Below are positions 42,443-46,151 of a stretch of 56,385 bases of DNA, one piece after another (within the stretch, counting starts at the first letter, position 1; each line of letters begins with the position of its first letter). The DNA comes from Bacillota bacterium (GTDB lineage Bacteria > Bacillota > Sulfobacillia > JAJZYS01 > JAJYTV01): the NCBI GenBank assembly GCA_021793315.1, contig JAJYSZ010000008.1, forward strand, positions 1-56,385. The letters are read 5' to 3'. Made by a program: the position numbers and the translations under genes. Below the pieces are notes generated by a model that worked only from the letters and a program-made list of their open reading frames with translations, searched no databases and was not told where the DNA came from.

Positions 42443-42589
42443 GCAGACCGGGACGATGACGGGCCGGTAGGAAGCGGATGGACATCGCGCGTACGCGGAG
42501 CCGCGAGGACGTCCAACTCGGACGGTCGCAGGAGTTCGCGCCACGGGTTCCTTGACGTTCAAGGGCCCTTGGGGAGTTGGTCGCGTGGC

Positions 42590-42745
42590 GGCGCCTTCGA
42601 CTCTGGACTCGCGCCGGAGACGTCCGACGCGAAGGGCGACGCCATCTGGACATGGGAGGTCGGGACCAGGACGACCCCGGGCGACTGGCCAGTCATCATC
42701 TCCGCCAACGGTAGTACCATCAAGCTGACGCTGCACGTCGAGTAA
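42590..42745 (+). pseudogene. C-terminal fragment of a secreted Ig-like domain protein
   Basis: The frame ending at TAA 42743-42745 reads FDSGLAPETSDAKGDAIWTW then EVGTRTTPGDWPVIISANGS. This resembles the last beta-sandwich domain of secreted Bacillota proteins (GLxPxTSDAxGxVSWTWxVGTxTTPGTWPV, pattern from memory). Upstream in the same frame the sequence turns into Ser/Arg-rich nonsense and there is no start or signal peptide. It is a gene tail left by deletion, directly upstream of the TGA-containing glutaredoxin gene. Confidence 0.6.
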
Positions 42746-42806
42746 GCAGGCTGCGGCAGGCAGCAGGACGCGCAGCCGAGTACGCAATTCGGGGGGCGTG
42801 TAAGCG

Positions 42807-43073
42807 ATGTCCGTCGTCATGTATGTGGTTCCGCTCTGACCGCACTGCGCCCAGGCACGGCGCTTCCTCTCGGCGAGAGGAGTAAAGTGGGAGGAACGAA
42901 ACGTCCTTGCGAGCGCCAGATACCTGCGCGAGATGCGCCGGCTCACGAACGCTAGAACGGTGCCGGTCACGCAGATCGGGGATCAGGTGATGGTCGGCTT
43001 CGACCCGCACGCTTACGAGGAAGCTCTCGTGGCCGCAAGCCGCCTGGCAGGCAAGTCGGGACCGCGGGCGTAA
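42807..43073 (+). CDS. Glutaredoxin-like protein with in-frame TGA (candidate selenoprotein)
   Basis: ATG 42807 (GGGGGGCG at 42791-42798 upstream) reads MSVVMYVVPL, then TGA at 42837-42839 (codon 11), then PHCAQARRFLSARGVKWEER and on to TAA 43071-43073, 88 residues if TGA is read through. The protein is a thioredoxin-fold glutaredoxin/NrdH type: the TGA sits exactly at the first Cys of the CPxC active site (L-U-P-H-C), and the cis-Pro block TVPVTQIGDQVMVGFDPHAY follows. The frame is otherwise free of stops and shifts. A 5-bp hairpin (42847-42863) with an AGG-containing loop and a second one (42866-42880) follow the TGA, as a bacterial SECIS would. The alternative is a nonsense mutation. sel genes are not in this window. 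Confidence 0.7.
42847..42880 (+). promoter_or_regulatory. Candidate SECIS hairpins after the in-frame TGA
   Basis: GCGCC (42847-42851), loop CAGGCAC, GGCGC (42859-42863) places an AGG loop 17-19 bases from the T of TGA, within the range of bacterial SECIS elements. CCTCTC (42866-42871) and GAGAGG (42875-42880) form a second, tighter stem. Either or both could be the SelB-binding element; neither is proof. Confidence 0.45.
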
Positions 43074-43135: not shown

Positions 43136-44575
43136 CTACGCGAGCTTGAACCTTGAGATCTGCTCATGCAGATCATGAGCCATGCCTGCCAGCCCTCGGG
43201 CCATGGCCGAGATCTCCTCCGCCGAGGCGCCCACCTCCTCGGTGGTGGAGCTCACCTCTTGGATCGACGCCGCGGTTTGCGTCGACACCTGGGCAACCGA
43301 CCGGATCGCGTTGGAGACCTGGTCCCCGAAACCGGACATGCCCTCGGTGGCCGCCATGTTCTCCTCGGTGATGCCCGCCATGCTGTCGATCGCTCCGACG
43401 GCGTCGGCAACGCCCGCGCTGACCTCTTCGGACGCCGCTGAGATGGTCTGCGCGTGCTCGTTCATCTGGCTCATCGCCTGCAGGATCAGCTGCAGCGCGT
43501 TGCCCGCGGAGTTTGCGAGCCCCACGCCGGTCTCCACTTCGCTCATCCCCGCGTCCATCGCCGCCATCGCAGCGTTCACTTCCTGCTGGATCGAACCGAT
43601 CAAGGCCGCGATCTCCTTGGTGGCCTTGTTGGAGTTCTCCGCCAGGACACGCACTTCGTCGGCGACCACCGCGAAGCCCTTGCCGTACTCGCCGGCGCGG
43701 GCCGCTTCGATCGCCGCGTTCAAGGCGAGCAGGTTGGTCTGGTCCGCGATGCCGCTGATCACCGCGACGATGTCGCCGATCTGCTGCGACGCCACACCAA
43801 GCTCGTGGACCTTGGCCGACGCCTCCTCGGACTTGCGCTGAATCGCGTTCATGCCCTCCACGGTCTGACGCACCGCCGTGCCGCCGTTCTCGGCGGCGGA
43901 GAGCGCGCTCGCGGCCTGCGTGGAAACCTGCTGTGCGACCTGGGCCACGTGCTCCATGGCATCCGCGATCTGACGTACCGTCTGCGAGATCCGCGTCGCG
44001 TCGGTGGCCTGAACCTGCGCTCCCTGCGTGATCTGGCCGATCGTGCTGCGAAGCTGCTCCATGACCTTGACAGACTCGTCCGCACTCGCGGCCTGCTCCG
44101 ACGCACCGGCGGCGACATCCTGGACGGCCACCGCGATCTGCTGCGTCGCCTTGGCCACCTGATCGGCGGAGGCGGCTGCCTGCTCCGACGAGGCGGAGAC
44201 ATTGTCGCTGATGCCGCTCGCGGCCCCGACTAGCTGGTGCAGGCTCTCCACCATCCGGATGCCCGCTCGCAGCGTGTCGCTGATCTCGTCCCGGCCTACG
44301 ACGTGCAGGCCGCGGCCCCGCAGATCGCCGTCAGCGATCCGCTCCATGCCCTGGACCACCGACTTCATGCGCGAGGTCATCGAGCGGCTGAGGATGGCGG
44401 CGAGGGTGATGCCGAGCACAGTCGCGACGACGCTGATGACGATGTCGATCGCCCGGACGGACGGGTTGACCTGGGCCGTAGAGTATACGATGACAGCGAG
44501 GAAGACCACGATCACGGCAACAAAGCTGCCGATCAGCTGCGTGCCTATCTTCATGTTGGCAAGGATCCGATCCAC
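43136..44575 (-). CDS. Methyl-accepting chemotaxis protein without sensor domain
   Basis: A 479-residue receptor. ATG 44575. Two TM helices (about 10-31 and 43-62) are separated by only about a dozen residues (YSTAQVNPSVRA), so there is no periplasmic ligand-binding domain. A HAMP-like region (MTSRMKSVVQGMERIADGDL) follows, then the long signalling coiled coil with the hairpin tip IADQTNLLALNAAIEAARAG then EYGKGFAVVADEVRVLAENS (about 270-310). Methylation-site helices flank it. It probably senses an internal or membrane signal, such as redox state, and talks to CheA/CheW, which are not encoded here. Confidence 0.92.
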   Translation of the reverse strand: MDRILANMKIGTQLIGSFVAVIVVFLAVIVYSTAQVNPSVRAIDIVISVVATVLGITLAAILSRSMTSRMKSVVQGMERIADGDLRGRGLHVVGRDEISDTLRAGIRMVESLHQLVGAASGISDNVSASSEQAAASADQVAKATQQIAVAVQDVAAGASEQAASADESVKVMEQLRSTIGQITQGAQVQATDATRISQTVRQIADAMEHVAQVAQQVSTQAASALSAAENGGTAVRQTVEGMNAIQRKSEEASAKVHELGVASQQIGDIVAVISGIADQTNLLALNAAIEAARAGEYGKGFAVVADEVRVLAENSNKATKEIAALIGSIQQEVNAAMAAMDAGMSEVETGVGLANSAGNALQLILQAMSQMNEHAQTISAASEEVSAGVADAVGAIDSMAGITEENMAATEGMSGFGDQVSNAIRSVAQVSTQTAASIQEVSSTTEEVGASAEEISAMARGLAGMAHDLHEQISRFKLA

Positions 44576-45041: not shown

Positions 45042-46151
45042 GTGCGGCGCGGCTTCTTCAGGCAAATCTTCGCCCTCGCCGTGCTGGTCGGAGTGATCAT
45101 CGCGGCGGGGGCGCTTTTGGAGCGTACCGTTCTCGGACGCGTGGCTCACGAGGTCGACGCGCTGTTCTCGGTGCCGCGGACTGGCACCGTGGCCCAGGCG
45201 CCCATCGTGATTGGGGCGCCGCACGCCGCCGGCCTGCCGACGCCCATGGTGCTCGGTTACTATGAGGGCGGCGCGGGTGGCGCGGGTTACAAGACATTGG
45301 AGCAGGACGCCCACCTGCTCTCGGGCATTGTGCCGGACTGGTACACGATCTGGGCGAACGGTGCCATCACAGGACAGCCGGACGAGCGTGTGCTGCAGTA
45401 TGCGCGCGACCACAGCCTCTGGGTCTTTGCCCTTGTCCAGCAGAACCAGTACGGCGGGCAGGTGCTCGGCCCCCTGCTGGAGAGCCCTCTAAGCTCGCGC
45501 CGCGCGATGGAGAGCATGCTCGCCCTGTGCGAGACGGAAGGCTTCGACGGCATCAACCTGGACTTCGAAGGTGTGCCGCCGAAAGACCGCCAAGACTACA
45601 CGAGCTTCGTGGGCCAGCTAGCGTCCCTGCTGCATCGCTATGGCTACTACCTGACGCTTTCGGTGCCGGCCGAAACCCAGGACGAGCCGGGGAATTCCTG
45701 GACCGGCGCCTACGACTACCGGGCGCTCGGCAAGGAGGCGGACCTCGTCATGGTCATGGCTTATGACCAGCATTACGCGGGGGGCAGTGCTGGCCCGATC
45801 GACAGCACCGCCTGGGTGCAGCAGGTGGCGAACTTCTCCGCCCGCACGATTCCGCCCCGGCGTGTCGTGCTCGGCATCCCCCTCTACGGCTACGACTGGG
45901 GCGGCTCGAGTACGGCGCAGGGCCTGTCGTTCGCGGCGTACCGGCAACTGGCGCTGCAGCACGGCGAATCGCCTTCGGCACAGGACCTCGTCTACTGGCA
46001 GGACGGCGTGCGCCACATCGCATACTACGCCGGCCTGTCCGACTTCGAGAGCAAGATCAGGCTCGCCTCCAGCTACGGCCTGCGCGGCATCGTGCTCTGG
46101 CGCCTCGGGCTCGAAGATCCGAGCATCTGGAGCTATCTCAACGGTCCCTGA
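45042..46151 (+). CDS. GH18-family glycoside hydrolase, YaaH/YdhD-like
   Basis: A 369-residue exported protein. GTG 45042 follows GGAGGGGAG. An N-terminal uncleaved or cleaved signal helix (FFRQIFALAVLVGVIIAAGA, about 5-24) precedes a TIM barrel with LGYYEGGAG, the catalytic block EGFDGINLDFEGVPPKDRQD (DxxxDxE, Glu about 177), VMVMAYDQHYAGG and LGIPLYGYDWGG. This is the arrangement of spore cortex or peptidoglycan N-acetylglucosaminidases of Bacillus, but LysM repeats are absent. A role in cell wall or spore cortex turnover is inferred. Confidence 0.85.
   Translation: MRRGFFRQIFALAVLVGVIIAAGALLERTVLGRVAHEVDALFSVPRTGTVAQAPIVIGAPHAAGLPTPMVLGYYEGGAGGAGYKTLEQDAHLLSGIVPDWYTIWANGAITGQPDERVLQYARDHSLWVFALVQQNQYGGQVLGPLLESPLSSRRAMESMLALCETEGFDGINLDFEGVPPKDRQDYTSFVGQLASLLHRYGYYLTLSVPAETQDEPGNSWTGAYDYRALGKEADLVMVMAYDQHYAGGSAGPIDSTAWVQQVANFSARTIPPRRVVLGIPLYGYDWGGSSTAQGLSFAAYRQLALQHGESPSAQDLVYWQDGVRHIAYYAGLSDFESKIRLASSYGLRGIVLWRLGLEDPSIWSYLNGP

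What the first reader, a model, noticed from the sequence alone, without database searches (positions are those of the whole stretch)
42807..43073. Glutaredoxin-like gene with TGA at the active-site cysteine: candidate selenoprotein
Seen: one 89-codon frame with a good ribosome binding site, interrupted only by TGA at codon 11. The TGA falls precisely at the first Cys of the glutaredoxin CPxC motif (V-P-L-U-P-H-C), with the rest of the fold intact, including the cis-Pro block TVPVTQIG. Two short hairpins begin 8 and 27 bases after the TGA; the first has an AGG loop. Known: Sec replaces a redox-active Cys in several thioredoxin-fold families, and automatic callers drop such genes. Inferred: this is a Sec-containing glutaredoxin. 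Against it: it sits beside a gene fragment, and a single TGC-to-TGA mutation would give the same picture.
Basis: partly seen in the sequence, partly recalled or inferred. Interest (0 to 1): 0.85.

Follow-up and report, generated by a model that had tools for sequence, protein, structure and literature searches.

The report
Selenocysteine-containing glutaredoxin gene
A small redox-protein gene that looks broken by a stop codon is almost certainly intact: the "stop" (TGA) is read as the rare amino acid selenocysteine at the protein's active site, making it a new member of an already known kind of selenoprotein.

Summary
Window 42807-43073 (+) encodes an 88-residue glutaredoxin with TGA at codon 11 (VPL-U-PHC). 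Seven orthologues in other genomes (82-59% identity, plus two more distant) carry TGA at the same codon. Purifying selection continues after it (dN/dS 0.11-0.32). The window's genome has tRNA-Sec (UCA), selA, a full-length selB, and a selD that itself has TGA at its active site. A SECIS hairpin fitting the published bacterial model lies at 42864-42882 (GGC loop, 32 nt after the TGA). Its pairing is kept through compensatory changes, and only 1 of 5,000 synonymous recodings folds as well. The only close Cys homologue (G507) nests inside the Sec clade, sits in a genome with no SelB over the cut-off and no convincing tRNA-Sec, and has lost the hairpin. The nearest characterised protein is Clostridium oremlandii Grx1, a native selenoglutaredoxin with the same UPHC motif. 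This is a new member of a known kind. Two glutathione-synthesis families were not found in the genome, so its reductant may not be glutathione. Mass-spectrometric proof is outstanding.

The parts
42807..43073 (+). Selenoglutaredoxin gene, 88 codons plus TAA stop
   Evidence: Translation; Pfam Glutaredoxin PF00462 at 56.7 bits, cut-off 22.9; AlphaFold model, pLDDT 83.6, nearest PDB fold 7c10
42837..42839 (+). TGA codon read as selenocysteine (codon 11, first residue of the UPHC motif)
   Evidence: TGA in all eight orthologues
42846..42848 (+). Codon 14, resolving Cys of the UxxC motif (TGC)
   Evidence: Invariant in all six sequences of A2
42864..42882 (+). bSECIS hairpin UUCCUCUC-GGC-GAGAGGAG; apical loop GGC at 42872-42874, 32 nt after the TGA
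   Evidence: 95.3% of cells paired, compensatory changes at two pairs; beats 4999 of 5000 synonymous recodings; fits the model of PMC13188914 Fig. 2
42847..42863 (+). First hairpin (loop with AGG): folds in the window but is not a conserved element
   Evidence: No compensatory changes; broken in G274 and G423
42957..42980 (+). cis-Pro block TVPVTQIG of the glutaredoxin fold
   Evidence: Translation and alignment
42791..42796 (+). GGGGGG, weak Shine-Dalgarno-like run
   Evidence: Sequence

Best explanation
A genuine selenoprotein gene. On the mRNA, the hairpin at 42864-42882 recruits SelB carrying Sec-tRNA(Sec), so UGA at codon 11 is read as selenocysteine and not as stop. The product is a small glutaredoxin/YruB-type redoxin whose Sec11 selenolate attacks a substrate disulfide (or a similar oxidised group). 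Cys14 then resolves the intermediate through a selenenyl-sulfide. Decoding is strongly supported by comparative evidence. The Sec11/Cys14 chemistry is inferred from the same UPHC motif in Clostridium oremlandii Grx1. The reductant is unknown; because two glutathione-synthesis families were not found in the genome, thioredoxin reductase or another low-molecular-weight thiol is more likely than glutathione (inference).
For: TGA at the same codon in eight genomes of four families. Purifying selection downstream of TGA. Own-genome tRNA-Sec with UCA anticodon, 68.7 bits; selA 533.8 bits; selB 310 bits with a complete open frame of about 640 codons; Sec-type selD with SGUGCK. Covarying SECIS-type hairpin that fits the published model. 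The hairpin is far more stable than synonymous recodings, and it uses AGA although AGA is only 0.6% of Arg codons in neighbouring genes. The Cys homologue G507 has no SelB over the cut-off, only a borderline tRNA-Sec score (47.1 bits, cut-off 47), and no hairpin. Glutaredoxin domain and fold; closest PDB entries 7c10/7c12 are cGrx1, a native selenoprotein with a UPXC motif.
Against: No direct protein evidence. The window is from a MAG (90% complete), and the Sec genes lie on other contigs of the bin. In the window lineage the flanking genes have changed (upstream gene reduced to a fragment; the RidA gene adjacent in relatives is absent there). G009's bin showed no convincing tRNA-Sec (82% complete). 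G066's hairpin is only moderately exceptional against synonymous recodings (239 of 5000).
Confidence: 0.96

Rival explanations
1. Pseudogene: a Cys glutaredoxin inactivated by a single TGC-to-TGA mutation.
For: A decayed gene fragment lies upstream, and a single base change would give this codon.
Against: The same TGA is kept in eight genomes, with dN/dS well below 1 after it and no acceleration in the window copy; a covarying hairpin is retained.
Confidence: 0.02
2. TGA is decoded as something other than Sec (near-cognate readthrough by Trp-tRNA, or reassignment of TGA to Trp).
For: An open frame continues after TGA.
Against: TGA is the ordinary stop of seven of ten neighbouring genes. tRNA-Sec and SelABD are present. 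The TGA aligns with the catalytic Cys of the fold, and a SECIS is conserved.
Confidence: 0.01
3. The gene is a selenoprotein, but it works like UXX-star selenoproteins (Sec as a metal or metalloid ligand) and not as a disulfide reductase.
For: NF041212 Uxx_star is the second-best NCBIfam model, 55.6 bits; PMC13188914 suggests metal binding for UXX-star.
Against: Below the curated cut-off of 66; the motif keeps the resolving Cys (UPHC), invariant in the orthologues; nearest structure is a UPHC redoxin.
Confidence: 0.1

Closest known systems
Clostridium (Alkaliphilus) oremlandii Grx1 (cGrx1; PDB 7c10, 7c12, 7c13; PMC7642778)
   Same: Native selenoprotein, U-P-H-C active site, same fold (38% identity in the Foldseek alignment), same VGFD region
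   Different: Different N-terminal signature (TSNTU against VVPLU). cGrx1 is paired with a Sec-MsrA; the MsrA found in the window's genome has no TGA.
Moorella thermoacetica Sec-glutaredoxin (L072; a glutaredoxin selenoprotein is listed for this species in PMC1794560)
   Same: TGA at the same codon, UxxC motif, 40% identity
   Different: Separate clade in the tree; UPSC motif, different hairpin sequence
NCBIfam UXX-star families (NF041114, NF041211, NF041212, NF047338)
   Same: Small glutaredoxin-like (seleno)proteins; weak to moderate profile matches
   Different: All scores below curated cut-offs; this protein keeps the resolving Cys
YruB family glutaredoxin-like protein (TIGR02196)
   Same: Best NCBIfam model, 64 bits
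   Different: Below its cut-off of 88.55

Membership tests
Bacterial selenoprotein gene | In-frame UGA at a redox-active position, conserved in orthologues | tested here: met
   Eight genomes with TGA at codon 11
[quoted passage not shown]
   8 bp stem, loop GGC (GUC in G066), 32 nt spacing
Bacterial selenoprotein gene | selA, selB, selD and tRNA-Sec in the genome | tested here: met
Bacterial selenoprotein gene | Se incorporated in the protein | not testable with these tools
   Needs mass spectrometry or 75Se labelling
Glutaredoxin (Pfam PF00462), UxxC selenoform | Domain match, UxxC/CxxC motif, cis-Pro | tested here: met
   56.7 bits against cut-off 22.9; both motif Cys/Sec positions and the cis-Pro invariant; fold
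Glutaredoxin (Pfam PF00462), UxxC selenoform | Use of glutathione as reductant | tested here: inconclusive
   No match to GSH synthetase PF02955 or GCS2 PF04107 in the genome; MAG about 90% complete, other glutathione routes not searched
UXX-star (NF041212) | Score over curated cut-off of 66 bits | tested here: not met
   55.6 bits
YruB (TIGR02196) | Score over curated cut-off of 88.55 bits | tested here: not met
   64 bits

The most novel reading that the evidence does not exclude
The VVPL-U-PHC clade is an unnamed subfamily of selenoredoxins that works without glutathione, coupled to thioredoxin reductase or another thiol, with a partner different from the Sec-MsrA of cGrx1.
Probability: 0.45. 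Interest if true: 0.4.

Novelty: new member of a known kind. Interest (0 to 1): 0.33.

Why it matters
It adds an unnamed subfamily of selenoglutaredoxins in uncultured Bacillota, scoring below the curated cut-offs of the NCBIfam glutaredoxin models, of the sort that gene callers truncate. The set also holds a clean natural comparison: in the one close Cys homologue, Sec, the hairpin and the decoding machinery are all missing together.

Tried and rejected
The first hairpin as SECIS: no compensatory change, broken in distant orthologues. The GC-rich 53-56-nt region as a whole: not significantly more stable than dinucleotide shuffles (z -0.3 to -1.6), so the informative test is the local hairpin against synonymous recoding. 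Operon partner: the RidA-family gene downstream in G001, G004, G005 and G009 is not adjacent in the window or G066, so no conserved partner was found. Sec-MsrA partner as in C. oremlandii: the single MsrA match in the genome has no TGA. Laying the whole genome in the Python box was not available.

Full report
Observation. The frame at 42807-43073 is as described: 88 codons, TGA at codon 11 as the only internal stop, then TAA. Reading TGA as Cys, Pfam Glutaredoxin matches at 56.7 bits against a cut-off of 22.9. An AlphaFold model (pLDDT 83.6) resembles solved glutaredoxins, best 7c10 and 7c12.

Is the TGA conserved? Orthologues in G001, G009, G004, G005 (71-82% identity) and G066 (59%), and more distant ones in G274 and G423, all have TGA at this codon, in the motif Y(V/I)VPLUP(H/R)C. 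G004 and G009 are nearly identical here (about 99% over the surrounding frames) and should count as one. Pairwise dN/dS after the TGA is 0.11-0.32. The window copy is not accelerated (0.16 against G005, compared with 0.17 for G001 against G005). A pseudogene is therefore very unlikely.

Can the organism decode Sec? The window lies in a 3.5 Mb MAG, 90% complete. It holds tRNA-Sec (Rfam 68.7 bits; ARAGORN SeC, UCA anticodon), selA (533.8 bits), selB (310 bits, complete frame of about 640 codons) and selD with its own TGA at SGUGCK. TGA is also the normal stop of seven of ten neighbouring genes, so this is not a changed code.

SECIS. Aligning 66 bases from the TGA of eight sequences needs no gaps. 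The second hairpin, 42864-42882, is paired in 95.3% of cells. C-G becomes U-A at one pair in three sequences, and A-U at another in one; sliding the partner by 1-3 columns drops pairing to 53-69%. The loop is GGC, or GUC in G066, beginning after a spacing of 32 nt from UGA. That satisfies the published bSECIS model (PMC13188914). Because this stretch also codes for conserved residues, I recoded it synonymously 5,000 times. Recodings at least as stable numbered 1, 0, 0, 40, 0 and 239 for the window, G001, G009, G004, G005 and G066. AGA, used in the hairpin, is 0.6% of Arg codons in neighbouring genes. The first hairpin fails the same covariation test.

The Cys homologue. G507 (one contig, 99% complete) has CPIC. 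In the tree it nests within the nine-member clade (support 99/97; its branch is long, so its exact place is unsure). It has no SelB over the cut-off (best 180.9 bits, within the range that looks like EF-Tu in the other genomes), and its best tRNA-Sec score is 47.1 bits against a cut-off of 47, in the range of the tRNA-Ser matches seen in the window's genome. Its hairpin is broken and its loop has no G. The simplest reading is Sec replaced by Cys together with loss of the machinery.

What it does. By sequence and fold the nearest characterised protein is cGrx1 of Clostridium oremlandii, a native selenoprotein with U(C)PXC, and CPHC in the crystallised Cys form. I infer the same chemistry: Sec11 attacks, Cys14 resolves. 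The usual glutathione coupling is doubtful: no match to PF02955 or PF04107 was found in this genome, while the controls rang in several named genomes, E. coli among them. The absence is not proof in a 90% complete MAG. The one MsrA found has no TGA.

Membership and novelty. It is a selenoprotein of the known UxxC glutaredoxin kind. It does not pass the cut-offs for UXX-star or YruB, so it is best called an unnamed subfamily. Sec/Cys switching is frequent among its wider relatives (22 Sec and 20 Cys rows, nine changes on a poorly resolved tree, four forced by well-supported branches), in line with published work on Sec/Cys exchange (PMC1794560).

Noticed in passing
window 42560-42745: Remnant of a gene: matches the C-terminal part of a 372-aa frame upstream of the G001 orthologue (53% over 47 aa) and a frame in G005 (60% over 55 aa); no Pfam match for the G001 protein.
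   Followed up: partly
window 43136-44575 (-): A methyl-accepting chemotaxis protein gene stands where relatives have a RidA-family gene next to the glutaredoxin; the GH18 gene at 45042 is shared.
   Followed up: partly
L011 / L012 (G009 C109, G004 C43): Two bins placed in different genera share this locus at about 99% identity: recent transfer or mis-binning.
   Followed up: no
L016, L022, L028, L029, L031, L032, L033, L035, L036, L078, L086, L095, L116, L119, L120: Many other glutaredoxin-like genes in this class and phylum have TGA at the first active-site Cys, in several motifs such as UPHC, UGSC, UPWC, URPC, UVPC, UGPC, UPAC and UPYC.
   Followed up: partly
G000:C207:18015-20359 (L054, L064): selA and a Sec-containing selD lie side by side in the window's genome.
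   Followed up: yes
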